This document shows, in pieces, positions 1,619 through 48,660 of a stretch of DNA of 64,000 nt. The position numbers were made by a program, and so were the translations under genes. The notes under the pieces are model-generated. The model made no database searches. It was given only the letters and a program-made list of their open reading frames with translations, and was not told the DNA's origin. The first letter of the stretch is position 1, and each line of letters opens with the position of its first letter. Source of the stretch: Girardinichthys multiradiatus (taxonomy: Eukaryota > Chordata > Actinopteri > Cyprinodontiformes > Goodeidae); NCBI RefSeq assembly GCF_021462225.1, contig NC_061816.1:24785049-24849048 (forward strand), read 5' to 3'.

Positions 1619-1623
1619 GTTAC

Positions 1624-2375: not shown

Positions 2376-2379
2376 AGTA

Positions 2380-2690
2380 TTATTAGAATATAAATAGAAT
2401 AGAAATATTCTTTGTTGTCCCACAGTTGGGAAATTCAGGTGTATCAGGAGCAAGTAAAAAGCAAATGGATGCATTCAGATACACACAAAGGTAAAAACTA
2501 TAAAAAGAAAACAAAGAATAGAAATTAACTGCACAGTAAGGGAAAAATGTACAAGATAAGAAAAAACTATACAGTTTTTGAAAATAACATATTCAGATTA
2601 AATGAAATGTGCAACTGAGTAGGGTGATTTTGAAAATGTACAAAATGCACATGTATAATTGTGCATAAAGAACAGCAGACTTGACAAATA
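2380..2690 (-). repeat. LINE-type 3' tail fragment
   Basis: The motif around 2400-2440 (a Ttgt-tgtcc-cacag-ttggg-aaatt pattern) resembles the fish LINE tail that reads 'tttattgtccc...ggggaaatt', in the orientation giving the element on the minus strand. The A-rich remainder has no coding potential. LINE clade uncertain. Confidence 0.45.
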
Positions 2691-3668: not shown

Positions 3669-4376
3669 TCCAATATGTAAAAATATCAGGTAGCATGGGA
3701 TACTTTTTTACTGTTATGCTGATGATACTTAGCTTTATTTATCTATAAATCCTGATGAGCCCAACGTCTTTTAACCAGAATCTTTGAAAAAGAAACTGCT
3801 TAATCAATCAATTAATGTGGACAGCATTAAATTGACCTCTGGTAATAAAATAAAAAACCTGGGTGTTATTTTTGACCAGGACATGTCATTTAAATGCCCT
3901 AGTAAAAACGTTTCTAGGATTTCCTTCTTTCACCTCCGGAATACGGCCAAAATTAGAAATATCCTGTCTGGGCGTGATGCTGAAAAACTACTCCATGCAT
4001 TTATTTTTTCAAGGCTAGACTATTGTCATTGTTTACATCAGGATGTCCACAAAATGCAGTTAAAAGCCTTCAGCTGATTCAAAATTCTGAAGCAACAGTT
4101 CTAATGAAAATGAAAAAGAGAGATCATATTTTTCCTACTTTAGCTTTCTTTCATTGGCTCCCTGTTAAATCCAGAATATAATTTAAAATTCTCCTTCTCA
4201 CATATAAGCCCTTAATGATATAGCTCCATCATACATAATAGATGTGATTGTTCCATATATTCCTAACAAAGCACTTCGTTCTCAGACTGCAGCTTTGCTG
4301 GTGGTTCCTAGAGTATCTAGAAGTAGAATGGGAGCCAGATCCTTTAGTTATCAGGCTCCTCTCCTGTGGAACCAGC
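3669..4376 (+). pseudogene. L2-group LINE reverse transcriptase remnant, left part
   Basis: The plus strand encodes a decayed L2/Maui-type RT. Near 3711-3730 a Y-A-D-D-T motif is followed by a stop. The frame at 3784-4077 then reads the region downstream of the catalytic box, including the family's [12 protein letters not shown] and S-R-L-D-Y-C segments. About 4100-4376 continues the C-terminal region with stops. The element is interrupted at 4376 by ERV-1 and resumes at 10501. Part of the RT after the YADD box is deleted. Confidence 0.8.
4372..4376 (+). repeat. ERV-1 target site duplication, left copy (CCAGC)
   Basis: CCAGC directly precedes the 5' LTR and recurs at 10501-10505 directly after the 3' LTR. 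Both lie inside the same L2 reading frame, which shows the insertion is intact end to end. Confidence 0.85.
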
Positions 4377-4900
4377 TGTTGGAATAATTGAATAAAGATT
4401 TGTCTTATAGTTTCTCCTATTTATTAACTTGACTATTTGATTATATAACTTTTCATAATGTATGTGTGAGTAAAGGATGTGTGAGTTTGTCTGCAGGCAA
4501 AGATCATAAATAGGAGCTGAACTAGCAGAGAAGGAAGCAGTCCAGTTGAGGAGGTCATAAAGATGAAGGCTGATTACACTGAACAAAAGGCACAACTGAC
4601 CCTACAAGTTGGAGGAGACTGTGGGAAATGTGTTGTTAATGTATAAAGCTGTTTATGACCTGTCTACGATGCAGTTGTTGTTTTCCCCCATCCTTTAGAG
4701 AACAATGTTTTTGTAAACTAGGGACCCCCGAAAGACAATAAAAAGAGGAGGCGGACAGATGCTCTTCAGAGCGGTGCGAGATCTGTAACTGAGCATATCT
4801 TGACCGTTTCTCCTCGCAAAGCGAGTAAAAGGAACTAATACTTTGTCTCTCTTTTCTTTTTGTGTTGTTATAAGTATTGTTAGGTTGGTTAAACCTGACA
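4377..4900 (+). mobile_element. ERV-1 5' LTR (524 bp)
   Basis: Starts TGTTGG and ends TGACA. By eye it differs from the 3' LTR at 9977-10500 at about 9 of 524 positions, with no length change. An AATAAA lies near 4737. About 1.7% divergence implies a fairly recent insertion. Confidence 0.9.
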
Positions 4901-4906
4901 TTAATT

Positions 4907-4918
4907 TGGTCCTTCGAG
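4907..4918 (+). promoter_or_regulatory. ERV-1 primer binding site, tRNA-Tyr-like
   Basis: TGGTCCTTCGAG starts six bases after the LTR and is complementary to the 3' end of vertebrate tRNA-Tyr. After 12 matching bases there is a two-base AG insertion before CCGG, where the match resumes. Two other elements here share the 5' part of this site. Confidence 0.6.
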
Positions 4919-5190
4919 AGCCGGATTCCAACTACGCCTGATGGTTCCAGCGGGTTGGTAGACTCCAGGAAAAGACCGTGCGCACGGCTGTTTTCAACAG
5001 GAAGACACGCAGACCATTTCCGGGACTGGATTTCGGCCCGCCCGCTGGAGTTTGACGGCTGACGGAACTCTGAGAGAGAGAAAAGAGGACAAAGTGGTGA
5101 GTTGAATCTGGATTTAAAACAAAAGTGTGACGAATGACTGGGGGTCATTGCGTGAAGTAAACAAACCCTGTGAATCCTAGGCCCTAACAG

Positions 5191-5440
5191 GTAACAAGCA
5201 GTGCGCCGGAGTCCTGCTTAAAGTATTAGTGAAAATACTGAAAATTCCGAGGTTAACAGCAGTGCGCCGGAGTTCTGCTTGAAGTATTAGTAAAAAATAC
5301 TGAAAATTCCGAGGTTATAGGGGACGACAGAGTCCTCTTAAGTATTAAGAAAGTAATACTAAAATTCCGTGTTTCCAGAACGGCGGAGTCTGAGTTTAAG
5401 TATTTTAAACAACAAAAACATACTAAGTAAAATCCGCGTT
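5191..5440 (+). repeat. ERV-1 leader: four tandem double-hairpin units
   Basis: Four units of about 58-66 bp follow one another. Each begins with a hairpin whose loop holds a GGAGT or AGAGT motif while the stem changes: AAGCAG/CTGCTT, AGCAG/CTGCT, AGGGGAC/GTCCTCT (one wobble) and a weak CAGA/TCTG. Each then has a second hairpin built on AGTAT(TA)/(TA)ATACT and an ATTCCG-like or ATCCGCG end. It sits in the untranslated leader between primer site and gag, where retroviruses keep packaging and dimerisation signals. Function is inferred. Confidence 0.6.
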
Positions 5441-6160
5441 TAAATGTGTGTATGTGAGAAATAAATGGAGGATTTAAACCACTAGGTTTTGCCTCATACC
5501 AAAGCAGTAGGATTGTAAGTGACTAACTTTTGTGGAAGCAAAGGCAAGAATTCTCCACTCAAAAGAGTTGAAGTGAGAATTACCACAAAAGGAGATTTTT
5601 CTGTCACCCTACTGAAGAGAAAAATCCAGGATTTAGAATACCCTAGGTATTTATATGCTGGACCAAATTTAAATAAAAAAAATGGGAAAAGGGTGTTTTA
5701 AATACACTAAAATGAATAATAATGTAAAGATTGGAAATTTATGGAAGCACAGGATCAAATTAAAATATTAAAATTAAAATATTTAGATAAATGGATAACC
5801 ACATATCATTATGATGGTCGTTTAAACTCTAAAAAAAATTAGGTGATCTATAGGATGCAATAATTAAAAGTACATTAAAAGTAAACGTGATTTAAGAAAA
5901 ATGGACAAAGCAGTAATGTAGATGAGGATGTAGATTATTGCTTAAAAGTAACTAAAAAGAGAGAAGTGTGATGCAGGAGACAAGAATGGACGTTTTTGTG
6001 GAAAGCAGAATAGTGCAGCGGGGAAAAGATGTCACAGACTGGTTTGTAACAATAATGAATACAGAACCTAGTGCATCCACAGGATTAATTAGAAAATTAT
6101 TATTTCGGACAGTGACAGTGCAGGAAGGGATACATTTGCATACAAAACAACAATGAGAAA
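5441..6160 (+). pseudogene. ERV-1 gag region, unrecognisable
   Basis: This is where gag should lie. Only short frames occur (5519-5701, 5968-6156). No zinc knuckle or capsid motif is visible, and the stretch is far shorter than a normal gag-pro region (over 1.8 kb), so most of gag and protease is deleted. Confidence 0.45.
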
Positions 6161-7830
6161 TATTCCTTACTGAACAGGAGGAACAGTTTTTGAATGAAGT
6201 CCCTAATAAGTTATGGTCAAAAGACCCTACTGATGTGGGTTTAGTAAAAGGAGCGTTACCTGTTCAAATTAGAGCAAAAACAGAATACAGGCCCAGAGTA
6301 AAACAAAACATGATGCACGTAAAGGAATAAAACCAGTAATAAAGGGTTTAATAACTGCAAGGGACACAAAGTCAGTAAAAAGAAATTACAGTTGTGTAAA
6401 AATGAGGTTAAATACTTAGGTCATAATCTTAGCGCGGGGGGATGCACAATTGTAGAAGAAAGAAAGACTGCAATATTACAAGTTCTAAAACCAGTAACAA
6501 AAAAGCAAATAATGTCCTTCCTTGGACTAACTAATTATTGTAGAAACTGGGTGCCAAATTATGCAGAAATAGTAGCTCCATTAAACAAATTAATGTATGA
6601 GGAAGAGCTGAAAATGACTTCTAAATTGAAATGGAGTGTAGAAGCTGAAGAAGCATTTACCAACATAAAACAAGTTCTAGTTTCCAGTACTGCTTTAGCA
6701 TTACCAGATTATAGTAAACCATTTGTTCAGATGGTAGATTGCAAGGGACATTTTATGACTTCAGTTCTGGTTCAACAATATGGAGATAAAATGAAAATAA
6801 TAGCCTATTTCTTTTCAAAACTAGATAGTGTTACGTGTGCGCAACTATATTGTGTGAGAGCTGTAATTGCAGCCTAAAATGACAGTTGCAGTGCTGCAAT
6901 AGTGTTGTTTCACCTTTTAACCTTAAGAGTTTCCCATGCAGTTTCAGCATTAATACTGCAGAATTAGGAAAAAAGAAGAAAAAAAATTAGAAGTGATTTG
7001 CAGGATCACGAAATAGTTTATGTGAATGATTTCTCTAAAAAGATGAGAGGGAGAAGACACAAACAGGATATGCATTGGTGACAATGGATATAGTGTTAGA
7101 AAAGATGCAACAACAAAACTCACTACAGGAGATAGCAATGTGGAAAAAACATGGAGCTGAATTAAAAGATGAAAACTATATTTGACCAGATAATAAACCT
7201 GTCCTACCAAAGAACCTATAAATGGAAGCATTATTTGAGCCATCGTGTTTCATAATGTCTCAACAGGGGGGAATAGTAGGACAGATATATTAATATTATA
7301 TAACATATTGATTAAATTCTAAAAACTTCTTATTAAAAAAATTTGTAAAACATGTTAGCATGTGTAAAACATTATCCACAAGGGAATTTAAGACAACGAA
7401 GGGGACAATTTGCAAAACTAAGATACCCTTTTCAAACAATTCATATGGATTTTATTGAGCTAAACCACAGTGAAGGGAAAAAGTTCTGTTTAGTCATTAT
7501 AGATGCATTTTCTAAACGGATAGAACTATTTCCAACTAAACATTACAAGCACCTCAGGGTTAACACCCTATGAAATGTTATTCGGAAGACCATACAGATT
7601 ACCACAGTTCAAAAAATAAGTGGGAGTTAGATGAAGAAGCTAACCTAGTTGATTATATGAGGAGTATGTTAGAAACCAACAGAAATAAATTTAAACTAAT
7701 GAGGAATGTTCTATTTCCCAGCAGGAAAACTAACTAGTGGAACCAGGAGACTGGGTGTTAATAAGGAGTGTAAAGAAGAAGCATTGGTATTCACCTAAGT
7801 GGGAGGATCCATATTAGTTATTATTAACCA
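6161..7830 (+). pseudogene. ERV-1 pol remnant: RT and integrase with catalytic parts deleted
   Basis: Class I retroviral pol in pieces. About 6165-6320 reads the N-terminal edge of RT (L-W-S-K-D-P-T-D-V-G). At 6392-6877 a 161-codon frame gives the RT thumb/connection and start of RNase H (Y-L-G-H, F-L-G-L-T-N-Y-C-R). The palm with its Y-x-D-D box is missing between the two. About 7070-7210 looks like the RNase H to integrase join. At 7352-7540 the integrase core begins (I-H-M-D-F-I, first catalytic Asp), then jumps to the C-terminal P-Y-E-M-L-F-G-R region near 7567, losing the second Asp and the Glu. This copy cannot encode working RT or integrase. Confidence 0.8.
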
Positions 7831-8039
7831 CTGCCAGGGCAGTAAAATAACTGAGAGATGAACCTGGATTCACCTTACACATTGTAAAAAGGTCATTTTG
7901 GTTGAAAGCTCCGCCAGGGGAAGTGATTTACAGACTGATAATAGGGTGGACCCAGACATTTAGAGTCTGGAGAGATCCGAAAGTCAGTGAAGACAATGAA
8001 GACACTGGAACCATTTAGAGGAGTGAAAATTTCAGCCAA

Positions 8040-9845
8040 AATGATTTCTAGATGCATGAACAATGCTTTCCGATGCTGGGTGGTTATATATATATTATAT
8101 ATATTTTTTTTCTTATATTGATTTTTATTTTTCTGGTATTTCTGGAAACCAGTCAAGATGAATTAGAATGTAACAACATCTGTTATGAGTTAAATGAAAC
8201 AAGTAGCGCTAAATCAAGGTAGGCAAGATAACCTAACTATGTGCACTAAACAAACTTCTTATACTTATGGTATTCAAGTGTGCGTGAAATCTAAAACCAT
8301 AGCTGTGGTGCTGATCCCACTCATTAGCTTGACCAAATGAGGAAGGAAAGGACAGGATTATAGAAGATATAAATGGTACTTAACTAATGATAGAAGAGAC
8401 ACCTCATGGTCCATGATGGTAGCTGATGAAGGAAACAATTGGACACCAGAGTGGTGCACCACTGCTTATGCTAGTCATCAAAAGAATTTGTTTAAGTTCC
8501 ATAAAGCTGATAATGCAATCCAGGTAACAGAGCGAAGAGAGTGAAAATTATGTTAGGAAAGTTAACCACAGATGACTAAGTTCCAGGTTATTACTGGAGT
8601 ATCAGGAACAAATAATAACTGGTTATTGATGGTAGAGCAAGCAGCTAACATGACTAAAAGAGATTGTGTTGTGTGTATGGGTTCCAGGCTTTTGTTACAA
8701 ATAATTCCAGCTGTGATACCAAAACTCTGTGTGATGGAAGTAATGAATCAAACTAATCCTCATGAAATGTGTCAGCATAAGGATTCTGTTTTTCCTGTAA
8801 TTAGAGCAGATAAGGATAAATCAGTTTTCCATAAGCGAGTCACCACTGGAAACTATACATGTATAAATATGACAGAGAGAGGTAATAAATTGGGACATCT
8901 CATTGCAGTATAGTGTACTACAATTGTAAAAGTAAATACGTGTTTTAAACCAGTCTCTAGAGGAAACATTTGGTGGTGGTGTGATGACGACAGGTTTTTT
9001 GATTGATCACCTTCAAAAGTAACAGGACTCTGTGCTTAATTACTTTATGGTTATATCCTATGTTAGTAGATGACGTAACAGATGGACTATCTAGTGTTAA
9101 AACCACATGATTGGTGAGATAGGAAGTGCAGAGAAGTAGCTTGGCAGACTGAGGGAGACTCTACATACATAGATGCTATAGATGAAGATAAATTAAGTGA
9201 TCAAGTAGCTGCAGGATTTGAATCAAGTATCTGTTGGTGGTGTACTTTGAACAGAAACGTAGACAGGATCAATTATATCCATTACAATGTTCAAAAACTA
9301 GGAAATTGGACACAAAGCGGGTTTGAACTGTCCATGACCGATTGGCTTCAACTTCCCTGATGGCATTCCAGAACAGAATTGCTTTGGACATGTTGTTAGC
9401 TGAAAAAGGAGACGTTTGTGCTATTTTCGGAGAAAAATGTTGCACATTCACACCTAACAACACTGCTGCTGGCTGATGGACGCCAAATTAAAGCCATAGA
9501 AGGTTTGAGATCTCTAAATGGCAAAATGAAAGGGCATTATGGAGTAGACGCCTCAATGTGGGACTCCTGGCTGGATATGTTTGGGAAGTATAAAATTTTA
9601 GTATCATCAGTAATAATTTCCTTTGCAGTGTTTGCTGCAATTTTGACATTGTGTGGATGTTGTTGAATGCCCTGCTTTTGTACTCTGTTAACCGTCTTAT
9701 CACCATAGCTATTTCTCCTATGGAAAACAGAGTTACACAACTCTATCTGTTATTTAAACACCAGGATGATGAAGATGACGAGGATGGGACTGACCACATT
9801 TCTGACCTGTATGCAGATCCATTTCTATATGATTCTGTGATTTAA
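8040..9845 (+). pseudogene. ERV-1 env remnant (gamma-type envelope)
   Basis: Broken envelope gene. A surface-subunit frame at 8572-8913 holds a C-V-V-C motif, the CXXC of gamma-type envelopes. Starting at 9360 a short frame reads the transmembrane subunit's conserved Q-N-R-x-A-L-D-x-L-L-A-E-K-G segment and a C-X6-C-C motif, then stops. The frame at 9418-9666 carries the following region with a hydrophobic membrane span (about codons 60-80) ending C-G-C-C. An acidic tail (D-D-E-D-D-E-D) is read at 9651-9845. CXXC plus CX6CC indicates a disulfide-linked SU-TM complex. Stops and shifts make it a pseudogene. Confidence 0.8.
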
Positions 9846-9965
9846 ATGTCAGTAAGTACCTCTAAGTATAATTGTCTTTGTACTCATGAAAATAATCTTA
9901 CAGTTAAAAAATCTGACAGAAGTGGCTGTTAAGTGATATGAGAAAATGAGCAGATATAAGACAAA

Positions 9966-9976
9966 CAGGGGGGAAA
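9966..9976 (+). promoter_or_regulatory. ERV-1 polypurine tract
   Basis: A run of purines (AGGGGGGAAA with one flanking base) directly abuts the 3' LTR start, the position and composition of a retroviral plus-strand primer. Confidence 0.75.
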
Positions 9977-10500
9977 TGTTGGAATAATTGAATAAAGATT
10001 TGTCTTATAGTTTCTCCTATTTATTAACTTGACTATTTGATTATATAACTTTTCATAATGTATGTGTGAGTAAAGGATGTGTGAGTTTGTCTGCAGGCAA
10101 AGATCATAAATAGGAGCTGAACTAGCAGAGAAGGAAGCAGTCCAGTTGAGGAGGTCATAAAGATGAAGGCTGATTACACTCAACAAAACACATAACTGAC
10201 CCTACAAGTTGGAGGAGACTGTGGGAAATGTGTTGTTAATGTATAAAGCTGTTTATGACCTGTCTACGATGCAGTTGTTGTTTTCCCCCGTCCTTTAGAG
10301 AACAATGTTTTTGTAAACTAGGGACCCCCGAAAGACAATAAAAAGAGGAGGCGGACAGATGCTGTTCAGAGCGGTGCGAGATCTGTAACTGAGCATATCT
10401 TGACCGTTTCTCCTCGCAAAGCAAGTAAAAGGAACTAATACTTTGTCTCTCTATTCTTTTTGTGTTGTTATCAGTATTGTTAGGTTGGTTAAACCTGACA
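9977..10500 (+). mobile_element. ERV-1 3' LTR (524 bp)
   Basis: Same length as the 5' LTR with about nine substitutions by eye, several clustered near 10161-10193. Followed by the CCAGC duplication. Confidence 0.9.
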
Positions 10501-10740
10501 CCAGCTTTCAGTTTTAGTCCGTGAGACAGGCACTCTGTCTCCTTTTAAAGCTAGGCTCAAAACTTTCCTTTTTGATAAAGCTTATAGTTAGAGGGCTTAG
10601 GTTAACCTGAGCTATCACTGTGGTTATGCTCCTATAGGAGCATGACCACTGAATGACAATGATTCTGCATGATTCTGAATGACCACTTTCAAAAACGGGC
10701 CGAGTCCAGGGCCAAGGCTGAAATAGAAACAGTATGGGAG
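10501..10740 (+). pseudogene. L2-group LINE, continuation after ERV-1
   Basis: The reading frame interrupted at 4376 resumes: the C-terminal RT segment that in sister copies follows 'L-W-N-Q-L-P', then the LINE 3' UTR. This confirms that ERV-1 inserted into an existing L2 copy. Confidence 0.75.
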
Positions 10741-10779
10741 TTAGTATGAATGATGTTGGTCTGACTGGTGGGGCGTAGA

Positions 10780-11320
10780 GAAGGGAGGATCTGTGCCTGA
10801 AAGAATTGCAAAGAAAATTAGTGAGCCTGGCAAGGACGTAGAGAGGGATAGACTGTGGCTCATGAGGCATAGAGAGGGATGTGGCATGTGCCTGACAAAG
10901 CATGGAGAGGGGCTGATACGTGCCTGACAAGGTGTAGAGAGGGAATGGTGCGTGCCTGACAAGGCGTAGAGAGGGATTGATGCATTTCTGACAAGGCATT
11001 GAGAGGGACTGATGCGTGCTTGACAAGGTGTTGAGAGGGAGTGATGAAAGGATAGCAAAGAAAATTAGTGAGCCTGGCAAGGCGTGAGAGGGCTGGACAG
11101 TGCCTGGCAAGGCGTCGTGAGGGATATGGTGTGCCTGACCAGGCGTAGAGAGGGATAGACTGTGCCTGACGAGGCGTAGAGAGGGATGTGGCGTGTGTCT
11201 GACAAGGCGGAGAGAGGGATGGCGTGTGTCTCACAAGCCATAGAGAGGGGTTGATGCGTGCCTGACAAGGTGTTGAGAGGGAGTGAAGTTTGCCTGACAA
11301 GGCGTAGAGGGAAATTTATC
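10780..11320 (+). repeat. Minisatellite, 32-bp unit with a higher-order repeat
   Basis: Units built on 'cctgacaaggcgtagagagg' recur. Starts at 10891, 10923, 10955, 10987 and 11019 are exactly 32 bp apart. A different phrase, gcaaagaaaattagtgagcc, marks two larger blocks 247 bp apart (10808 and 11055). Open frames on the minus strand across the block are a by-product of the repeat, since 32 is not a multiple of three and no frame is preserved. Confidence 0.85.
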
Positions 11321-11739
11321 TGGCGAGATTGAAGTGATAAGAAGAAATGTGGGAGACATAACAGATAACATCACCTGACGGATGTTTGAGGTTTGGGACC
11401 TTGAAGAGAATGATGGGAGAGAATGAGGTTTCATGAAACGATCTCACGTAGAAAGGATAAGTTTAAACTGAAAAGGCCAACCACCACCAGTTAATGCAGA
11501 ATCTTTTACCTAAGAGCTGATTGATCATTGAACAAATAGCAGAGAATAGAAGTTTAGGTGGACATGTGAAGAGAATGCTGAAGTCGACCAGAGGCCAGAA
11601 GTTGTTGTAGGGAAGCTGTGGAAACTCCTAGGGTAGCTGCTGAAGTAGCTGTCCTGATTCTGAATGAGTGACCTGAGAATTGACTAGGGGGAAACTTGCA
11701 TTGAACTAAAGTTTGCATCAGAAATTAGAGGAAACTATC
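11321..11739. other. Unassigned stretch
   Basis: No coding frame, tandem repeat or recognised transposon. It lies between the minisatellite and the LTR-like block. Confidence 0.4.
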
Positions 11740-12344
11740 ATGATTTATGGGTGTTTTGGGGTTCTTATTATTATTCTTAATAGGTTTTGAATCATGCTTT
11801 TGTTATTTTCATGGTCATGCTTTAGTTTTTGTTTTCTAGTTCATGTTTTGTCAAGTTAGGTTTATTGGATCTGGTTATGCTTTAGTTTCATGGTTTACTA
11901 GTTGTGTTTTAAGTTTGTATTCAAGAGTCTCTGTTTTGCTCCAGCCACGTTTTGTTCACTCCTGTCTGTCAATTAACTTTATTTGGTTCATCTGAACCTG
12001 GCATTCAGTGTCCTCGTTTCACTTGGTTCCTGCTCTATATATACACCTCTGTTCTGTTCATTTCTCGCGGAAACATTACGGATCATGTCATTCTGTGTTC
12101 ATGCCAAGCCTTTCCAAGCCTATATTTGCCACCACGTTCCAAAGTAAGTTTTATTTATTAAACCATTTACTCACCACCTATGCTTCCTGTCCATCAGCAT
12201 TCTGGGGTCCTCCATTGACCGCACCTGACAGAATGTTTCTGCCAAAATTGGACCTCACAGACGGTAAGCAAGAGAGCGCCAGTGATCGCTGGGTTTAGCA
12301 GGAGATGGAGGAGGCATTGAGACATATGCCAGCTGATCTGGAGG
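11740..12344 (+). mobile_element. LTR-like sequence with a possible gag start
   Basis: A TATA-like CTATATATAC lies near 12033 and a TTTATTTATTAAA stretch near 12148. The block ends CACCTGACA (12228-12236), like fish gypsy LTRs. The next 100 bp read as a possible leader and gag N-terminus (about 12232-12298). The left end could not be fixed and no target duplication was found. The block truncates the minus-strand Gmr1-type element at about 12345. Assignment is tentative. Confidence 0.4.
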
Positions 12345-13086
12345 TCCTCTTTCTCTACAGTAGAATACCTGATCTCACGTGGGTGCAGCTTGCGGCTAAG
12401 ATATAACAGGGGATGTTCTTGGGCCAGAACTGCCTCCAAGCCAACTGCGGAGGCATCCACCTGTACCACGAACCTTTTACCAACACAGGAGAAGAACAAA
12501 GCAGTGTCTTCAGGATATTGAAGGCCTTCTCACATTCATCTGACCATATTACTGGATTCCGTTGGTCTTTTCCGGTCAGCAATGTAAGTGGAGCTACAAT
12601 AGTTGCAAAGTGGGGTACAAAGTGTCGGTACCAACTGGCTAATCCCAGGAACGATCGGACCTCTTTCTTGGTACGAGGTCTAGGACAGTTCTTGATTTCC
12701 TTCACTTTATCCACTTGGGGCCGGATCTCTCCTCCTCCCAAGCAATAGCCCAAGTACTGTGCCTCCTTTTGTGCCCACTCACACTTAGAATGGTTGAGGG
12801 TTAATCCTGCTTCCTGGATCTTTCTCAAAACAAGGGACAAATGTTGGATATGCTCTTCCCATGAAATGCTAAAAACCACCACATCATCAAGGTAAGCTGC
12901 ACTGCAGTGATCACAACCCTGGAGAACTTGGTCCATCAGCATGTGGAAGGTGGCTGGTGCACCATGTGGCCCAAAAGGCATCACCGTAAACTGAAACAGT
13001 CCAGCTGGCACTCTGAAAGCTGTATAATGCCTGGAACTCTTCTCAAGCGCAATCTGCTAGTACCCTTCACATTGGTCAAGTGTGGT
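12345..13086 (-). pseudogene. Gmr1-type element: RT (C-terminal part) and start of RNase H
   Basis: Minus-strand frame 13011-12355 reads Ty3/gypsy RT: Q-F-T-V-M-P-F-G, the catalytic Y-L-D-D near 12894-12883, then Y-L-G-Y and S-F-L-G-L-A. An overlapping frame (12499-12345) gives the RNase H start (V-Q-V-D-A-S, L-S-R-K-L). It is cut off after V-E-K-E. In this element RT lies downstream of integrase, the reverse of normal Ty3/gypsy order. The gene is split by the insertion at about 13087-13612, has frameshifts and is dead. Confidence 0.85.
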
Positions 13087-16481: not shown

Positions 16482-16773
16482 TGTTAGGTATTATTTAGTC
16501 AACTCAGAGGTAAGAACGATACAGTCATAGTTACTTGTGACAAGGGTAGCCCACTTTGCAGTGAAACTACAAAGTTTTTGACACCCTATCTCTTTATTTA
16601 TATGCACAGTTCAACAGACAGTTCAGACAGGGTGTGTGTGTGAGACGGAAAGGAGGCTGGTTCACACAGAGATAACAATGATCTCACACACACAGGGAGG
16701 AAGGCATAGTGCAGGTGCCTTGCAACCCAAGGTTTTTACATGAGTGATAACAAGTTTTTGCACCCATCCAACA
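16482..16773 (-). repeat. TRIM 3' LTR (292 bp)
   Basis: Reads TGTTGG...CCTAACA on the minus strand. A TATAAATAAA core (minus strand, near 16590) serves as a likely TATA/polyadenylation region. I see no difference from the 5' LTR. Confidence 0.88.
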
Positions 16774-16790
16774 GTCCCTCCTTTTATCAC
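16774..16790 (-). promoter_or_regulatory. TRIM polypurine tract
   Basis: On the minus strand AAAAGGAGGGAC directly precedes the 3' LTR start. Confidence 0.65.
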
Positions 16791-16994
16791 AAGTAAAAAC
16801 ATTTAATATAAAAACGAGTAAGAAAAATACTTTGTATGAGCGAAAACCCACGGACGGTAAACAGATTATATTTTGTGGGAAATACTCATACGGCCCCGCC
16901 GCCCTCGGCGACCATTAAAAGTTAAATGTTGATTAATTATAGTATAAATGTCCCAGATAAAAGGTCACTGGCATGAGACTTTATGGAGAGGACA

Positions 16995-17036
16995 TTAACA
17001 CGGCCTTCTACTGCGACTAATTCGCAGCGGTGTTAA
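16995..17036 (-). ncRNA. Conserved two-level stem in the TRIM leader
   Basis: An inner stem CTGCG/CGCAG with a 7-nt loop (17011-17027) sits inside an outer TTAACAC/GTGTTAA pair (16995-17001 with 17030-17036). The same nested stem occurs in ERV A2 at 44257-44298, with changes in the loops and linkers. Likely a structured RNA element of the leader. Confidence 0.6.
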
Positions 17037-17278
17037 TTTTCTGGAATGAAATCCGACCTGAATCTCCAAAGTCACCAGTACGTAGTTTTAATCTGGGCAA
17101 AAGAAAACACAGGACTAGCAGAATCCTGCTATGATTCTATTAAAATGCTTAGTCCTCCAAACACACACAACACAGTCACACAGTTAGTTTCAGGTACCTT
17201 GTAATTTTTCTAAGTTAACTTGGTGTTATTTTATGAGCTCAATTTACTCCGTTCTTTTTACTTTTATAGCGCTTATTC

Positions 17279-17596
17279 TATTCCCTCGCAGGGGAATAAC
17301 CCTTAGTCGTTTTATTTGGCCCCCTTCTTGGCGGGGCCCTACCTTAATTTGTCACTATTCCTTTCACGGTGGAATAAAACCATCCCAATGCAGCGTCCTT
17401 ACCGGCGACGCACTACCAACGACTTTTAAGTACTTTTCTTCTTTTATTTATATAGCGCTTACTCTATTCCCTCACAGGGGAATAATCCTCAGTCGTTTTC
17501 TTTAATCCCCTTCACGGCGGGATTGTACCAAATTTGTCACTATTCCTTTCACGGTGGAATAAAACCATCCGAATGCAGCGTCCTTACCGGCGACGC
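17279..17596 (-). ncRNA. Hairpin array in the TRIM leader (eight stem-loops)
   Basis: Eight short perfect inverted repeats lie in two copies of a four-hairpin block about 185 bp apart. Stems differ (GCGTC, TATTCC, AATCCC or GGCCCC) while loops on the transcribed minus strand are alike: GCCGGTAAG, ACCGTGAAA, GCCGTGAAG or GCCAAGAAG, plus a divergent CCTGYGAG. Positions include 17318-17338, 17357-17377, 17393-17411, 17465-17484, 17504-17524, 17541-17561 and 17578-17596. The phrase GTTGGTAGTG precedes the GCGTC hairpins, as it precedes hairpins in ERV A2. Function unknown; packaging or dimerisation is the natural hypothesis. Confidence 0.7.
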
Positions 17597-17870
17597 ACTA
17601 CCAACGACTGTTAAGTACTTTTCCTATGAACTGTATTTTAAAACTGTCTCACCTCGGAGTTGACTTCTTGGTGACTCTTTGGACCCTGTGAGAGTCACCC
17701 CGCGCAGAGGAAGGCAATAACCCACTGGCCAGGTGTGAATTCACACACACCGGGACTTTCAGCCACTCCGGCTAAAGGAGGCTGTGCAGCGGTGCTTCGC
17801 TCGACGTCAGGCTTCCCCCACGGATCCCAGAGTCACTGTTAAAGCAAAGAGAAATAAGGTTATTGAATTA

Positions 17871-17889
17871 ATCCGGCTTCGAAGGACCA
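17871..17889 (-). promoter_or_regulatory. TRIM primer binding site, tRNA-Tyr-like
   Basis: Minus strand TGGTCCTTCGAAGCCGGAT lies five bases from the 5' LTR. It matches the tRNA-Tyr 3' end apart from one extra A in the middle. Confidence 0.6.
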
Positions 17890-17894
17890 ATAAA

Positions 17895-18186
17895 TGTTAG
17901 GTATTATTTAGTCAACTCAGAGGTAAGAACGATACAGTCATAGTTACTTGTGACAAGGGTAGCCCACTTTGCAGTGAAACTACAAAGTTTTTGACACCCT
18001 ATCTCTTTATTTATATGCACAGTTCAACAGACAGTTCAGACAGGGTGTGTGTGTGAGACGGAAAGGAGGCTGGTTCACACAGAGATAACAATGATCTCAC
18101 ACACACAGGGAGGAAGGCATAGTGCAGGTGCCTTGCAACCCAAGGTTTTTACATGAGTGATAACAAGTTTTTGCACCCATCCAACA
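17895..18186 (-). repeat. TRIM 5' LTR (292 bp)
   Basis: Same length and, by eye, same sequence as 16482-16773. It is followed on the plus strand by the CCAAG duplication and then by Gmr1-type gag. Confidence 0.88.
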
Positions 18187-38792: not shown

Positions 38793-39000
38793 CTGTTAGG
38801 TATTATTAAGTCAACTCAGAGGCAAGAATGATACAGAGTCAGTTTTACTTGCAGCAAGGGTAGTTCACTTTGCAGTGCAGACTACAAAGTTTTGACACCT
38901 TATCTCTCTATTTATATGCACAGTTCAACAGACAGTTCAGACAGGGTAGGGTGTATGTGTGTGAGGCTGAGAAGAGGCTGGTTCTCACAGAATGTGATTC
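38793..39000 (-). mobile_element. A-family LTR fragment (U5-R-part of U3)
   Basis: Starts tgttaggtattatt on the plus strand and follows the TRIM LTR through its TATA region, then breaks off at about 39000. The missing U3 part resembles 40241-40372. Confidence 0.7.
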
Positions 39001-39288
39001 AGCCTCTGGTGTGTGTGTACCAAAGATGATGACCAAAAGAATGTAATGATTATATGAATGTATTGTCCTGTATTTTCTCATTGAACAACGTAGAAAGGTA
39101 TGAGTTAGTCAGAGTTTAGTCCTGCCCAGGTTAACCTCTATACTGCCCAGTCATAGGTTTTGAGGAACACAGAGACAGATTTGTTTGTTCTGCTTCGCCA
39201 CGGATCACTGATTGTTCAGCAAAGGACAGAATGGTCCCAGTAGCTTCAAAGACTACAATTCATCTCACCCTTTGAACCTAGGGGGGAA
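39001..39288 (+). other. 3' interior end of a third ERV-like element
   Basis: No coding motif recognised. It ends with AGGGGGGAA at 39280-39288, a polypurine tract directly before the LTR at 39289. Confidence 0.5.
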
Positions 39289-40154
39289 TGTTGGACCACT
39301 TGTTGCTGAATATTGGACTACCTGCACGGTGCGGGACGCCACTAGGCCTCCTGGTGTTTTCGGCCATTTTGTATCCAGGACATTGCGACTAATATGATGG
39401 GACGCCCCAAGTCTGACGTCACAGGGCGCTATATATGGAGGCACCCATTTTGAACACCCTGCCTTCAGCTGGAGACCGGACCAGCAACTGAATCTGCATC
39501 ACATCTGCAGAAGAGTTCCTTGCGGATTTAATTTATTCTCTCTCGAACAACAACGAACAATTCCCAACTGAGGTTTCTGGAATGAGAAGGCCAGAAATTT
39601 AACTTTGTCAATCGAAGATGTGAGCTTAACACGTAACTAAGAACATGGAGTTTCAAGGAGACGAACCGCTACCATGACTGACTGCTTTCCCTGAAGTTAA
39701 TTGTGTGGACGCACAGTTAACCTCCTAGATATTTTACCCCTTTTATGTAGAACTTTGCATTTTGAGTAGGTGAAGATTATTAAATCGGAAGAACGGATGG
39801 TATCTGGCTGTGATTTAATAAATATTCACATAGATGGTAACAGAAGGCGTTTGTGTTTATTTTGTGCAAAAGTGATTCGTCAGTTAAGATAAGGTTAAAA
39901 GTTCCACACACTTCGGAAGAAGTGTGTGGAACTTCGATTAAACAGTGACATCTCCGGCAATAGTTATTAATTATTACGGAGTTTTTAATGTTTGTAATTG
40001 TCAAAGGCGTTGAGCCACAATTACAACACCAGAAACATCTCTGGGCTCGATTCATAAATGAGGATTTTGGTTAAGAAATTGATTTTGTCAAATTATGATT
40101 TTTTATTATAATTATTGATCAAGATTAATAAATCAACAATCATAACTCCCAACA
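39289..40154 (+). mobile_element. 866-bp LTR of a third ERV family
   Basis: Begins TGTTGG and ends CCAACA. It has a TATA core (GCTATATATGG near 39428) and AATAAA near 39817. The polypurine tract just upstream marks it as a 3' LTR of a largely deleted provirus. No second LTR and no clear target duplication were found. A perfect 16-bp hairpin lies in its 3' part. Confidence 0.7.
39899..39934 (+). ncRNA. Perfect 16-bp stem-loop in the LTR
   Basis: AAGTTCCACACACTTC (39899-39914) pairs exactly with 39919-39934 around a GGAA loop. It lies about 80 bp after the AATAAA signal, so it may be in R or U5 of the RNA and could affect 3' end formation or export. Role inferred. Confidence 0.7.
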
Positions 40155-40372
40155 AGCGTGAATTCACACGCCTGGGATTTCAGCCACTCCGGCTAATGGA
40201 TGCTGTGCAGCAGTGCTTCGCTCGACGTCAGGCTAACAGATAACAATGATCCCACACACAGAGGGAGGACTGCATACCAGAGCATGATACAAAGCGGAGT
40301 GCAGCTGCACTCAGCACAAAGTTTTTACATGAGTGATAACAAGTTTTCGCACCCATCCAACAAATCCTCAGT
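40155..40372 (-). mobile_element. A-family leader and U3 fragment
   Basis: About 40157-40240 matches the TRIM leader (17738-17820) and 40241-40372 matches U3 of the TRIM LTR to its end (CCATCCAACA). The R and U5 parts that should lie between are missing, so this is a deleted 5' end. Confidence 0.65.
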
Positions 40373-43184: not shown

Positions 43185-43557
43185 TGTTAGGGTTTGAAAA
43201 CTTTTTTATTGTTTATCACTCATGTCTGCTCTAAGTGCCTTTTCCAACTACATGCCACAGAAAGGGAGATGGGGAGAGGAGTGAGTTATGCTTTTATCAG
43301 CAGCATCTAGGGGCTATTCGTACCAGGTCCCCACTCTCCCTCTTTGTTTAAAATCAAGACACATGAACCCTAACCTTTCTGACCCAACACACACACCCTG
43401 AATATTTGTTGAACTGTGTGTGAACCAGCATGTATAAATAAAGAGAGAGGGTGCCAACACTTTGTAGTTTGCACTGCAACAGTGAGCTACCCTTGCTGCA
43501 AGTAAAACTGACTCTGTGTCGTTCCTTACCTCTGAGTTGATTGAATAATACCTAACA
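43185..43557 (+). mobile_element. ERV A2 5' LTR (373 bp)
   Basis: Ends TGTTAGG...CCTAACA. TATAAATA at 43433-43440 overlaps an AATAAA. It resembles the LTR at 34936-35320. The 3' LTR is not found because the element is truncated at about 48165. Confidence 0.85.
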
Positions 43558-43563
43558 TTAACT

Positions 43564-43576
43564 TGGTCCTTCGAGC
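43564..43576 (+). promoter_or_regulatory. ERV A2 primer binding site, tRNA-Tyr-like
   Basis: TGGTCCTTCGAGC, six bases after the LTR, is complementary to the tRNA-Tyr 3' end for 13 bases and then diverges. Confidence 0.6.
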
Positions 43577-43851
43577 AGGATTTTATAAGAACTAAACTGA
43601 TCTTATTTTTCTTTGCAGTGACTGGCGGATCTCCGGGAACAGCCTGACGTCGAGTTAAGCGTTGCCGCATAGCCACACCTAGGCCTGTTGGCTGAAAGTC
43701 CCGGTGTGTGACATTCGCATCTGGCCGGTGGGTTATCATCTTGCTCGACGCCGGGTGACTCTGGGAGGTCCGACAGAGTCACCTAGAAGTCAGCTCAGAG
43801 GTGAGACGTTTTGTTTAACATTAAAGAAAGGTTATAATAAGTCGTTGGTAG

Positions 43852-44016
43852 TGTCTCGCCATAAGGAGACAGCAATTGGATAGGTTTTATTTCGTCGGAA
43901 GGAAATAGCGATAAATTTAGGTAGGATCTCGCCGCAAGGAGATCAGAAACGACTAGGTAGTTCCGCCGTAAGGGAACGGGATAATTTGGTTGGTAGCATT
44001 TCGCCAGAAGGAAATG
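43852..44016 (+). ncRNA. ERV A2 leader hairpin array (five stem-loops, 36-nt period)
   Basis: Five perfect hairpins start at 43853, 43889, 43925, 43960 and 43997. Stems are GTCTC/GAGAC, ATTTC/GAAAT, GATCTC/GAGATC, GTTCC/GGAAC and CATTTC/GAAATG. Loops are GCCATAAG, GTCGGAAG, GCCGCAAG, GCCGTAAG and GCCAGAAG, all eight bases with consensus G-Y-C-R-N-A-A-G, and all closed by a C-G pair. A GGTAG- or GGT-type phrase precedes each stem. Different but complementary stems with one loop suggest selection on RNA structure. The TRIM leader has a related array. Confidence 0.8.
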
Positions 44017-44256
44017 AAATGAAATGTTGAATAGTAAGGGAGCTCATAAACTAAGCTAGGTTGACCATACATATTGCTGAAGGGACATAAATATGTTAAA
44101 ATACTAACTGTGTGAGTGCTGTTGTGTGTGTTTGGAAGACTAAGCGTTTTGGAAGAATCATAGCAAGATTCTGCTGGTCTTGTGTTTTCTTTTGCCCTGA
44201 ATAGAAAGACGTATTGGTGATTTTTGGAGATAAAGGTCGGGTTTAATCCCAGAAAA

Positions 44257-44298
44257 TTAACACTGCTGCGGATTAGTCGCAGTAAAAGGGCGTGTTAA
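44257..44298 (+). ncRNA. Conserved two-level stem in the ERV A2 leader
   Basis: Outer TTAACAC/GTGTTAA (44257-44263 with 44292-44298) encloses CTGCG/CGCAG (44266-44282). The TRIM leader has the same arrangement at 16995-17036. Confidence 0.6.
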
Positions 44299-44374
44299 TG
44301 TCCTCTCCTTGAATCTCATGCCAGTGAACTTCTATCTGGGACATTTATAGTATTGTGAACTAAAATTAAACATC

Positions 44375-46006
44375 ATGGGGAAGAAACAAAGTAAACTAAT
44401 TAACTTAGAAGGGGATGTAAAGTTTATGGAGAACTATGTAGAAGGAGCAGGTATGATCTGTCATAGATGGAATAAAAAACATGGTTTCTTGGGTAAACTA
44501 AACATTAAGGATATCTTAAAATTACAAGGAGATTTAAAATGAGAAATAATGAAAACCAAGAAACCAACTAAAAAGGAACAGAGAAAGGTCGAGTATAAAT
44601 TCTCGGACAAATGGCTGGAACAAAGTAAGTTAAGAGACATGCAGAGGCAAGATAAGAAGGAGAAGCAAAAGGAGAAGCCGACAGCTGCGGTCTTGGTGCG
44701 CCCACATGAAGAAACAGTGGTCGCATCCAGACAGTGAGGAATGCAGCCCCCTGCCGTGCAGACAGCTGCAGGACAGGTGGCTGCAGCACAACAAATTGGC
44801 GGAGAGATAGAAGGAGCTGTAGCAGTTCCTAAAACTCCTATAAGTAAGCAAGAAAAGTTAATCAATCCTTTTAAAACAGAAGAACAGAGCTCTTCTAGTG
44901 AGTCCTGGTCTCCTAATTTCTGGGGGGGCACAGGCATGCGAACTAGGAGTAAATATAAGAAAACTACTCCCAACATATACCCAGGCGAAGCCTTAATGAC
45001 TCACGAACAGAAATTTCATCCATCTGGAAAAAATGTAGAGGAAGACACATTTCCTCTAGTTGAAGTAGCAAATCCAAACGTAGGTGACGCCAATCACCGA
45101 CAGCCGCCAACTATTCTAGTATATAGACCATGGACACAGGAAGACAGAACTGCTGCTTTAAAGGGTATCCCACCGATACAGGAAGGAGTAGAGGAGTTTT
45201 TAGCAGCTATTACAGAACTCAGAGGAAGCTTCCATCTTAATGGCAGAGAAATGCTCCAGTGTTTTACCCAGCCGTTTGCCCATCGCTGGTGCAGAGTAGC
45301 AGGAAGTTTTACTGGATGCAATGACAATGGTGACACATTAGCACATAATTCACCAGATTTAAGGGACGCCTTAGGCTTACTCTTTGAAAGAATTCAAAGA
45401 GTTTATATACAGACAACAGATTATGGTAAAATCTCACAATGCAAACCGAAGGATGAAGAAGACCCACAAGATTTCTTGGATAGGATGAGACGTGTTTTTA
45501 GAGCAAACTCTGCTATACCATATGATGAAGCAGAGGCGGGAGCCTATCAGCAACAGTTGAAGAGAGCCTTTTTGCAAGGCCTTAAAATTGAACTCAGACG
45601 GTAGATAGATAAACACTGGGTTCATCAAAATACAGGAACTGTTACCCAAGCCTTAGAGTATGCACAGCATGCCCATAAAACACAGCAAAATAGGAAGACA
45701 GATACATTTGGAATGCAAGACAGCTTAATAGCAATGCATCGCTCAGGGATAAACAGGCAAAGGGGACGGGGAGGAAGAGGAGGTCACAGAGGAAGAGGAG
45801 GAGGAGGAGGGCCACGACACACCCACACAAAGAGCAATGCGTGTCTGAGGTGTGGAAAAATAGTGCATTATGCTAGAGAATGTAGAACAATTTTACAAAA
45901 CCCTGGCGCAAGAGATGACAACTGCTGGATCTGCAATGAGCCAGGACATTTTGCAAGAGAATGTAATGAAAAGCGGGTGTATAACCCCAATTCTACCCAG
46001 AATTGA
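44375..46006 (+). pseudogene. ERV A2 gag, one frame with three internal stops
   Basis: Starts at the ATG at 44375 (M-G, a likely myristoylation start). It is read in one frame to the TGA at 46004-46006, broken by TGA 44540-44542, TGA 44735-44737 and TAG 45602-45604. Capsid-like sequence is at about 45110-45600. A Gly/Arg-rich stretch (about 45755-45820) precedes two zinc knuckles, C-L-R-C-x4-H-x4-C and C-W-I-C-x4-H-x4-C (about 45840-45965). Two knuckles and a terminal stop in frame with pro-pol resemble class I retroviruses that use stop readthrough. No frameshift was found over 1.6 kb. Confidence 0.85.
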
Positions 46007-48165
46007 CAATTACAGCCACAGCCCCCACCTCCTCCCCCACTAGCAGAGAGAAACAGTAGAGAAATGGAGGAAGTTGACATACAAGCAGCACTGGAACTCA
46101 TAGCACTAAGAAGGATGCAATATTTGCCTTATAAAAACATAATAAATGGCAAAGCACATAGCTGTTTGTGTGATACAGGGACATGTACAACTGTGCTAAC
46201 TGAACCTCCAACCAGAGTAAAATATTCCAACACCGCAGTGCATGTTAGATCAGCAGCTGGCACATCAGAGATACATTACCTAAGTGCACCAGTAACAATA
46301 ACAGAACCGGAGACAAAACTTACTTGTCAGGCCCCCGTTCTGATACGTAAAAAATGCCCAGTAAACCTGTTGGGAAGAGATCTTATGCAAAAGTTGCATA
46401 TAAATATAGTATCAACAGAAACAGGTATGAAGTCTGTGGTGGAAGAAGGGGCCCTAGTCCTAAATGAACTCTCACAGCTACATTATTACTGGTCCCTCGA
46501 TCTAGGCCCCACACCAACAGCTCGAGAATTGCTGAGGAGAACCAGAGAAAAACAAACCTCCCAGGGGGCACAGTACATGCCAGATAATGAGCTCCATGTA
46601 ACTATGAGGTACAAAAACACTCCAGGACCAGATCATCAGTATGACACTGTTAATAATCAGACTGTTACCATACAGCACCTGTATGTTGACCCCAAAACAG
46701 GGAAATCCTCCACCTCAATCATACTGTCAGGAAAACAGCTCCAACAGTTTAAAGGTAGTACACCTCATCTGTCATTAACTAAACCCATGGGGGGTCAGTG
46801 GAAAGAATTAGAAAACTTTATACAGCATGCTGAAAGGGGGAGGTATGAGGCATTAACAAGCTCTGACTGGAAAGTAGATCCTAACACAGGAATCTGGAAA
46901 CTCACTCTAGGGTGGATAGTCAAAGTCCATCCAAAGACACATTTGGATGAGGCAAAGTGACAAATACAGGGCCTAGCTGAAAGCAAAGAGAGCAACAGGC
47001 ACCCTGCCTTAGCTGCTGTCCCACCTGAACTGTGGTCCCAATCATCGACTGATGTAGTACTTATAAAAGGGTTTCCACCATATAAGGTTAAATTAATATC
47101 TGAAAAATGGCCAGTAGTTCGCCAGTACCCCTTGAAGCCAGAAGCTGAAGAGGGTATTACGCCAGTAATACAGGACATGCTGAAATCAGGAATATTAAGG
47201 GAAGCACCTGATGCTACATGCAACACACCTACCTTTCCAGTGCAGAAAGCCAGCACAGGAAAGTGGAGGATGGTCCAGGATCTCAGACTGATAAATTAAA
47301 TTGTGAAACATGTAGCTCCTGACGTCCCGAATCCACATACATTACTGCATTCATTAACTCCAGATAAAAAATATTTCTCAGTGGTAGATCTTAGCAATGC
47401 CTTCTTTACAGTACCACTGCATGAAGAGTCACAGCATTTATTTGGCTTTCAGTTTAAAGGGAAAGAATACACCTACACCAGACTACCACAAGGCTTCAGC
47501 GAAAGCCCACATGTATATACACAAGCCTTAAGATACGCTATGAGCACCTGTGAGGTGCCTGAACATAGCCAAGTCCTGTTGTTTGTAGATGATATTCTTA
47601 TAGCTTCAGACACTCAACAACACTGTGAGGAAGATACCATAACAGTTCTGAAACATCTCTACCAGACAGGGCACAAAGCCTCTAGGGATAAACTGCAGTT
47701 TTGCAAGGAGAAAGTGATTTATTTGGGACATATGTTATTACAACATGGCCGTTCCCTCCTAAGCAGCAGAAAAACCGCCATACAGGAAGCCCCAAAACCA
47801 CAAACTAAACAACAAATGATGTCCTTTCTGGGACTGTGTAAATTTTGCAGAGAATGGCTACCAGACTATGCAGCCATTGTACAACCCTTGCAATCTATGA
47901 TCTATGGCAAAGACATGACATTAAAAGACAAAATCACATGGACTAAGGAGGAAGAAGCAGCAGTCACAGAGCTAAAATATCTGCTTCAAACAACAGTTAC
48001 CTTAGCTCTGCCGGATTATAGCCAGCCTTTCACACTTTGTGTAGATGCATGTAAGGGTTATATGAAAGCTGTATTAACCCAGCCATTTGGCTCCAAAAAC
48101 AGACCTTTAGCATTTTATTCTAAAAAACTGGACTCTATGGCATCTATGGCACTTCATAAAGGGTT
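46007..48165 (+). pseudogene. ERV A2 pro-pol (protease, RT, start of RNase H), truncated
   Basis: Continues in the gag frame. Protease has L-C-D-T-G-T (about 46166) and N-L-L-G-R-D-L. A TGA stop follows at 46958-46960, and the RT start carries L-W-S-Q-S-S-T-D-V. After a TAA at 47297-47299 RT continues: D-L-S-N-A-F-F, L-P-Q-G-F-S-E-S-P, catalytic V-D-D in L-L-F-V-D-D-I-L-I-A (about 47578-47608), Y-L-G-H, F-L-G-L-C. RNase H begins with V-D-A-C (a Cys where most relatives have other residues) and is cut near 48165. Integrase and env are missing. Confidence 0.85.
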
Positions 48166-48660
48166 TGGAATGGTCCGGGGTTGTTGGGTAGGTTAGAATA
48201 AACTACTGAGTGTTAGAGTTTGGCCCTTTTAGAATAGGCTATGTGTAGGGGTACTAGGAAAAATAATTAACTGATAAAGTTTGTCCATCTAGAACCCTCA
48301 GGTTGCCATTGTTATACTAAAAACCACAAGGATTGGAGGTACCTCTCTCTGTCAGACTGATTATAACCATTGGAAAAGAGAAGGGGTTGCACAGGTAGCA
48401 GAAATGGTGTGTGTGTTCGCACCTCAACCATAACTGAGCTGTTTTAGGCTAAACCAGACTCCTCCTTACTCCATCCAACAGGGATAGAGGAAGGCAGAGG
48501 TAAGAATAATTGGCGAGTGTTGTTTCCTGTTGCATTGTGTGAAAGGTGGGTAACTTTGAAATGGGCTAAGTCAATTCAATCGAATCATACAGATTCCAAG
48601 TCAGGCACATACATTCTAATTAATCCTAACTATCAAACAGTGCAGTCAGATATCTGCCCT
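48166..48660 (+). repeat. L2-LINE-like 3' UTR fragments
   Basis: 48265-48505 repeats the 220-bp block at 29297-29515. 48570-48655 matches the LINE 3' UTR seen at 28367-28430 (acatacatt...aatcctaa). They form the broken right edge of ERV A2. Confidence 0.6.

What the first reader, a model, noticed from the sequence alone, without database searches (positions are those of the whole stretch)
43852..44016. Array of five hairpins with one loop and changing stems in an ERV leader
Seen: five perfect stem-loops with a period close to 36 nt. Stems GTCTC, ATTTC, GATCTC, GTTCC and CATTTC each pair with their exact complements, while all loops fit G-Y-C-R-N-A-A-G and are 8 nt long. Changing stems with kept pairing is what selection on RNA structure leaves behind. 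Known: retroviral leaders hold packaging and dimerisation stem-loops, often several with alike loops. Inference: the repeated loop is a binding site for the family's Gag or a loop-loop contact, used in many copies.
Basis: partly seen in the sequence, partly recalled or inferred. Interest (0 to 1): 0.88.

Follow-up and report, generated by a model that had tools for sequence, protein, structure and literature searches.

The report
Repeated RNA hairpins in fish retrovirus leaders
An old viral element in a fish genome carries a row of small RNA hairpins whose arms mutate in matched pairs while the tips stay alike, in hundreds of copies, which points to a repeated handle used when the element packs its RNA, although that use has not been tested.

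Summary
Five perfect hairpins lie at 43852-44016, between a splice-donor-like site and gag of a gamma-like endogenous retrovirus. 0 of 5000 dinucleotide shuffles reach five. A second element in the window, a gene-less 1.7-kb LTR element on the minus strand with identical LTRs and a 5-bp target duplication, carries the array twice. Over these three arrays 8 of 29 stem pairs changed on both sides, none on one side, none broke. The context of hairpin 1 occurs 1126 times in the genome, reversed control 0. In 70 unique arrays hairpins 1-4 have two to four fully paired stem versions each; on a tree built without the stems of hairpins 1-3, partners co-change on 8 branches against 0.9 for random partners (0 of 5000). 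The structure is close to certain. The packaging role is inferred from position and from the gene-less element; Gag binding and loop-loop contact are untested. New variant of a known kind.

The parts
43185..43557 (+). 5' LTR of element A (TGTTAGGG...CCTAACA)
   Evidence: sequence and self-BLAST with other LTR copies
43564..43581 (+). primer binding site-like stretch TGGTCCTTCGAGCAGGAT; fit to the 3' end of tRNA-Tyr is recalled, not tested
   Evidence: sequence; core TGGTCCTTCGA within 330 nt upstream of the array in 24 of 38 distinct upstream stretches
43798..43807 (+). splice-donor-like GAG|GTGAGAC shortly before the array
   Evidence: same in element B; exact in 34 of 38 distinct upstream stretches, 40-44 nt before the array, AGGTRAG in 37 of 38; no transcript data
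43840..43954 (+). closing helix P0: 43840-43846 with 43948-43954, encloses HP1-HP3
   Evidence: returned by RNAalifold from the alignment alone; identical in A, B1, B2, so no covariation within it
43852..43871 (+). hairpin 1
   Evidence: three fully paired stem versions in 70 arrays
43888..43907 (+). hairpin 2
   Evidence: two fully paired stem versions
43925..43944 (+). hairpin 3
   Evidence: four fully paired stem versions
43960..43977 (+). hairpin 4
   Evidence: two fully paired versions, outer pair mismatched in 10 of 57 placed; degenerate by eye in the eight TT-type leaders printed
43997..44016 (+). hairpin 5
   Evidence: CATTTC/GAAATG in one and CATTCC/GGAATG in six of ten TT-type leaders; absent from B1 and B2
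44375..48196 (+). gag start (ATG 44375), CCHC knuckles (45605-46003), protease (46007-46957), RT and part of RNase H (47300-48193), in open stretches interrupted by stop codons
16482..18186 (-). element B: 1705-nt LTR element without the retroviral genes; LTRs 17895-18186 and 16482-16773 identical, 5-bp target duplication CTTGG, PBS-like and polypurine stretches
17466..17609 (-). array copy B1 (P0, four hairpins)
17280..17424 (-). array copy B2 (P0, four hairpins), 185 nt from B1

Best explanation
The stretch is a structured cis-acting RNA element in the leader of a gamma-like fish endogenous retrovirus family: a short helix closing three hairpins, followed by one or two more, each a 5-6 bp stem with a purine-rich, mostly GNRA-like tip. 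Shown: the hairpins, paired change over many copies, position between a splice-donor-like motif and gag, presence in a gene-less element that has moved as a unit, change in hairpin number. Inferred: it is only in unspliced RNA, and works as a redundant, multi-copy binding site for Gag (nucleocapsid) that marks genomic RNA for packaging, in the manner of the tandem hairpins of murine leukaemia virus, so that full-length and gene-less elements both enter particles made by intact relatives.
For: Paired change: A against B1 6 pairs, A against B2 7, B1 against B2 3 changed on both sides, 0 one-sided, 0 broken of 29; in an unconstrained simulation (Watson-Crick pairs only counted as kept) 10.9 of 29 break on average and none of 200,000 runs kept all. 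RNAalifold returns P0 and HP1-4 with 8 compensatory pairs; pairs changed on both sides 8 against 2.7 in shuffles, 0/500, and 0-1 with slid partners. Tree made without HP1-3 stems: 8 same-branch co-changes, all on internal branches; random partners mean 0.86, maximum 7, 0 of 5000 reach 8; 22 of 32 one-sided changes are on terminal branches. Wobble intermediates occur (GTGTC/GACGC in 3 of 70). Ten of ten leaders fetched by a motif upstream of the array hold hairpins with the family loop, 2 to 6 each. Splice-donor-like motif 40-44 nt upstream in 34 of 38. Element B has moved as a unit without genes. [quoted passage not shown]
Against: No binding, packaging or transcript data. B keeps the whole leader as a block, so its retention does not single out the array. 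Among 25 B-type copies the leader after the array differs by 1.05%, four windows of the gag-like stretch by 1.0-2.05%, PBS to splice-donor region 1.38%; no clear constraint shows (the 0.48% of the array is biased by the query). HP4 is mismatched in 10 of 57 arrays and degenerate in one lineage; HP5 is missing from B1 and B2. One of the measures (further pair types, 8 against 7.3, 161/500) does not stand out. Ranking of column pairs by mutual information was not decisive. Fold energies of B1 and B2 are ordinary (z -1.29, -0.81).
Confidence: 0.6

Rival explanations
1. The hairpins are real RNA structures, but serve translation, export or splice control of the unspliced RNA, bound by host proteins, rather than packaging.
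For: The same position fits. GNRA-like tips and unpaired purines are general contact sites (recalled). The gene-less element B would still need export.
Against: B has no retroviral gene to translate and keeps the array twice. No Rfam family reaches its gathering score in the window; three weak matches in the leader are far below theirs.
Confidence: 0.2
2. Hairpin arms are kept matched by a copying artefact, template switching inside inverted repeats during reverse transcription, without selection for a function.
For: Such correction makes both changes at once; 8 co-changes were inferred on single branches. Tandem copies of about 77 to 186 nt show that this stretch slips.
Against: Wobble intermediates are kept. 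The long-range helix P0 is kept too, though it does not covary. Tips keep a pattern although stems change. All ten leaders chosen by an upstream motif keep hairpins.
Confidence: 0.11
3. Dimer linkage: the tips contact each other between two genomic RNAs.
For: In MLV the two GACG tips take part in dimer contacts (PMC5874298, passages).
Against: The five tips of the window's array lack it. A palindrome GACGTC upstream (43646-43651) is a better candidate for a dimer start.
Confidence: 0.08
4. A chance or plain tandem repeat with hairpin-like units.
For: Period of about 36 nt and GGTAG before four of five hairpins point to descent from one unit.
Against: 0 of 5000 shuffles; the stems of the units differ and all pair; covariation.
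Confidence: 0.01

Closest known systems
Murine leukaemia virus SL-C and SL-D (GACG hairpin pair) in the dimer linkage and packaging region
   Same: Neighbouring hairpins with one conserved tip in a gammaretroviral leader, in the region linked to dimer formation (PMC5874298, passages); MLV packaging determinants mainly downstream of the splice donor (PMC5086612, passages)
   Different: Two hairpins with GACG tips there; here 2 to 8 hairpins, tips GNRA-like in 8- or 9-nt loops, stems that change, variable number, extra closing helix
Non-autonomous retroviral elements that borrow particles (mouse VL30; ETn with MusD; recalled)
   Same: LTRs, leader and priming sites kept, genes lost or broken
   Different: Element B carries a doubled hairpin array; a helper and movement in trans are not shown here
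Rfam release 15 families
   Same: none
   Different: 0 matches at gathering score in the whole window

Membership tests
Gamma-like (class I) endogenous retrovirus | LTR, priming site, gag with CCHC, protease, RT nearest to MLV-type RT | tested here: met
   best chains 4hkq, 5dmq, 4mh8 (E 6e-60 to 2e-59; that these are XMRV/MLV-type is recalled), MMLV chain 1mml E 3.5e-28; no RT tree was made; a 3' LTR of element A was not found by self-BLAST of the window, env was not searched for
MLV-type GACG hairpin pair | GACG tetraloops | tested here: not met
   no GACG tip among the 40 commonest loop types or the loops
MLV-type GACG hairpin pair | tandem hairpins between splice donor and gag | tested here: met
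   the splice donor is a motif match, not shown by transcripts
Retroviral packaging signal | bound by Gag and needed for RNA entry into particles | not testable with these tools
   needs bench work
Retroviral packaging signal | conserved RNA secondary structure | tested here: met
Non-autonomous LTR element (element B) | two LTRs, target duplication, priming sites, no retroviral genes | tested here: met
GNRA tetraloop | G-N-R-A tip closed by a pair | tested here: inconclusive
   positions 4-7 of 8-nt loops read GNRA in 138 of 157 (HP4, placed without looking at the loop, 52 of 57), but the energy model leaves the closing pair open (p 0.00-0.07) and 110 further loops have 9 nt

The most novel reading that the evidence does not exclude
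A packaging signal of variable valency: a redundant set of interchangeable GNRA-tipped hairpins whose number is gained and lost by tandem copying, and whose doubling in a gene-less or gene-broken lineage helped it to compete for Gag and spread to hundreds of copies.
Probability: 0.2. Interest if true: 0.8.

Novelty: new variant of a known kind. Interest (0 to 1): 0.6.

Why it matters
How Gag picks genomic RNA is still argued for the few retroviruses studied. Here one genome holds hundreds of leaders with different stems, tips and hairpin numbers. That makes it possible to ask which parts of a packaging-type element matter and whether more hairpins go with more copies. It also offers an RNA family that Rfam does not hold.

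Tried and rejected
Self-BLAST and open-frame listings placed the array in a leader, not in a gene. Rfam: nothing. Mutual-information ranking over 13,075 column pairs was confounded by the split of A and B lineages and by an alignment slip at HP3 (true pairs ranked from 4 to 12,974); it was replaced by stems placed on 5' side and loop and by counts on a tree. Thirty copies most like A: of 1050 cells 991 Watson-Crick, 16 G-U, 43 broken, mostly decay, with two cells changed on both sides (P0 pair 4, HP5 pair 5). Divergence along B-type copies gave no clear constraint signal. A guess that most B-type copies are 1.7-kb elements was wrong: by exact end motifs only the window's own of 30 has both LTRs within the stretch. 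Counts of paired against crossed HP1 stems over the whole genome were planned and never answered. Papers: 0 for endogenous retrovirus with Goodeidae, 0 for tandem hairpins with retrotransposon and packaging; the listings (titles and abstract starts, some capped) named no such array; only passages of two reviews were read.

Full report
WHAT IS THERE. The five hairpins are at the stated place and as described. They lie in element A on the + strand: LTR 43185-43557, a PBS-like site from 43564, a splice-donor-like GAG|GTGAGAC at 43798-43807, the array, then gag (ATG at 44375), two CCHC knuckles, protease and RT in open stretches interrupted by stops. Among solved structures the RT part is nearest to chains 4hkq, 5dmq and 4mh8 (E 6e-60 to 2e-59; XMRV/MLV-type by recall) and also matches an MMLV chain (E 3.5e-28). 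Gag relatives: 15 proteins, 13 from Xenoophorus, Ilyodon, Ataeniobius and Ameca (56-91% identity over part of the query; goodeid fish by recall) and 2 from Brienomyrus (54%). Protease relatives: 9 proteins, 3 named, from Xenoophorus, Goodea and Ameca. The genome is 1.15 Gb in 72 contigs. The host is thus probably a goodeid-like teleost; no tool named it.

CHANCE. In 5000 dinucleotide shuffles of the 183-nt stretch none had five hairpins with 5-bp stems and 8-nt loops (mean 0.14, maximum 2). The 754-nt leader has six, one of them outside the array; the maximum in 5000 shuffles was 5. The loop-and-arm motif with one mismatch is not rare in the window (10 against 6.3 expected). Folding energy is a weak witness: z -2.19 for A, -1.29 for B1, -0.81 for B2, and the best fold of A lets arms of HP2 and HP5 cross-pair.

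TWO MORE ARRAYS IN THE WINDOW. On the minus strand at 16482-18186 lies element B: two identical 292-nt LTRs, 5-bp target duplication CTTGG, PBS-like and polypurine stretches, 1121 nt between the LTRs, none of the retroviral genes. Its leader aligns with that of A up to the gag start and holds the array twice, 185 nt apart. Hairpins 1-4 and the closing helix P0 correspond; HP5 is absent. Of 29 pairs (P0 7, HP1 5, HP2 6, HP3 6, HP4 5) 8 differ somewhere in the three arrays, always on both sides; none is broken. Pairwise there are 6, 7 and 3 double changes and 0 single ones; unpaired positions differ at 18 of 78, 18 of 79 and 9 of 86. If changes fell without regard to pairing at the observed rate, 10.9 of 29 pairs would break on average, and none of 200,000 simulations kept all. 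RNAalifold, given only the alignment, returns P0 and HP1-4. Sliding the partners by 1-3 columns leaves 0-1 double changes; one of five measures, further pair types, does not stand out.

THE GENOME. The context of HP1 (24-nt pattern with free stem and tip) has 583 + 543 = 1126 exact matches, the reversed control 0; 197 carry T at stem position 2. A DNA search with array A scored 40 of 549 candidates and gave 43 matches; with the B arrays it scored 40 of 1050 candidates, all 99-100% identical over 391 nt, so B-type leaders spread recently. By exact end motifs 29 of the 30 fetched B-type copies are not the 1.7-kb form. Of those 29, 28 (L154 itself included) share a following gag-like stretch with L154, one of them (L181) with a gap; L174 parts just after the arrays. 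In L154 that stretch has stops in all three frames near its start; the other copies were not checked. So B-type elements look non-autonomous, and their movement by intact relatives is inference.

STEM VERSIONS. From 154 array instances in the loci held then, 70 were unique (33 A-like, 37 B-like). Hairpins 1-3 placed by 5' side and loop only: HP1 27 GCGTC/GACGC, 25 GTCTC/GAGAC, 9 GTGTC/GACAC, 3 wobble GTGTC/GACGC, 2 other wobble, 4 broken of 70; HP2 33 TATTCC/GGAATA, 28 TATTTC/GAAATA, 8 wobble, 1 broken of 70; HP3 26 GATCTC/GAGATC, 15 GGCCCC/GGGGCC, 15 AATCCC/GGGATT, 2 GATCCC/GGGATC, 6 wobble, 6 broken of 70. HP4, only where inner TTCC/GGAA with 8 nt between was found (57 of 70): 31 ATTCC/GGAAT, 16 GTTCC/GGAAC, 10 mismatched in the outer pair. 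On a tree of the 70 arrays made after cutting out the stems of HP1-3, partner columns change on the same branch 8 times, all internal; random partners give 0.86 on average, maximum 7, 0 of 5000 reach 8. Two more double changes (HP2 pair 5, HP3 pair 5) fall on the two sides of the root. One-sided changes: 22 terminal, as expected from decay after insertion, and 10 internal, of which 4 are that root split; of the other 6, five keep a wobble or return from one (the last reading is mine).

A SAMPLE NOT CHOSEN BY THE ARRAY. The motif AGCCTGACGTCGAGNNAAGC, about 200 nt upstream, has 393 + 378 = 771 matches, control 0. On contigs C1 and C2, where both listings are complete, 37 of 38 CG-type, 3 of 4 TG-type and 1 of 13 TT-type leaders have the exact HP1 context downstream. 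Ten TT-type places were then fetched (L222-L231: the plus-strand ones listed on C1-C3, six of them among the failures, four on C3 not compared). All ten hold hairpins with the family loop, 2 to 6 perfect ones each, so those failures are drift in the pattern rather than loss of the array. HP5 there reads CATTTC/GAAATG in one and CATTCC/GGAATG in six, a further paired change. In the eight printed, HP4 is degenerate by eye; L223 lost HP1; L225 has HP1-3 twice, 109 nt apart. By placement without regard to pairing, 14 of 184 cells in eight of the ten are broken and 7 are wobbles; two had no anchor and were left out, and the broken cells of L223 and L227 are partly misplacements.

TIPS AND NUMBER. 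Positions 4-7 of 8-nt loops read GNRA in 138 of 157 (HP1 25/33, HP2 31/34, HP3 30/33, HP4 52/57). For HP1-3 the placement favoured AA before the last base, so only the G is a free result there; HP4 was placed without looking at its loop. In the window's own array it is 3 of 5, the other two ANAA. Of 110 nine-nt loops 87 read GTGAA or GGTAA at positions 4-8. The energy model does not close the tip. The array is copied in tandem by units of 185 and 168 nt, about 109-114 nt and about 77 nt (two neighbouring matches). A redundant and changeable number argues for a dose-like rather than a strictly built element (inference).

HOW IT LIKELY WORKS. The splice-donor-like motif is 40-44 nt upstream in 34 of 38 distinct upstream stretches, so the array would be only in unspliced RNA (inference from a motif). 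[quoted passage not shown] another describes the MLV pair SL-C and SL-D with GACG tips and their part in dimer contacts (PMC5874298, passages). By position, repetition and conserved tip the array works most likely as a Gag-binding packaging signal. It fails the tip test for the MLV pair, so it is not filed as that family.

LIMITS. There are no bench data. The constraint test within B-type copies gave no clear signal. Selection by array similarity biases and much of the set of 70 arrays. Novelty rests on no Rfam match and on the paper searches, which cover open-licence papers only.

Noticed in passing
44103-44353 (+) and 16939-17188 (-): A block just before gag is 86.9% identical between A and B and holds a nested stem around CTGCGGATTAGTCGCAG; possibly a second structured element.
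   Followed up: partly
43603-43618 (+): A 3' splice site-like stretch (TTATTTTTCTTTGCAG) soon after the PBS, upstream of the splice-donor-like site; a like stretch was found in 32 of 38 upstream stretches by a loose pattern.
   Followed up: no
43646-43651 (+): Palindrome GACGTC within AGCCTGACGTCGAG, kept in A, B and the degenerate copy near 40158-40240 (-); candidate dimer start.
   Followed up: no
38794-40362 (-): Degenerate copy of the same family: LTR pieces and a short leader piece, no array recognised, interrupted by other sequence.
   Followed up: partly
G000 contigs C24 and C25 (L153-L158): Three pairs of matching B-type loci lie in the same order on C24 and C25, with equal match patterns; these contigs may be haplotypes or a sex-chromosome pair.
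   Followed up: no
10825-11312: Diverged tandem array of about 32-nt units.
   Followed up: no
45605-46003 (+): The nucleocapsid part joins an RG/GG-rich stretch with two CCHC knuckles; one knuckle is usual in gammaretroviruses (recalled).
   Followed up: no
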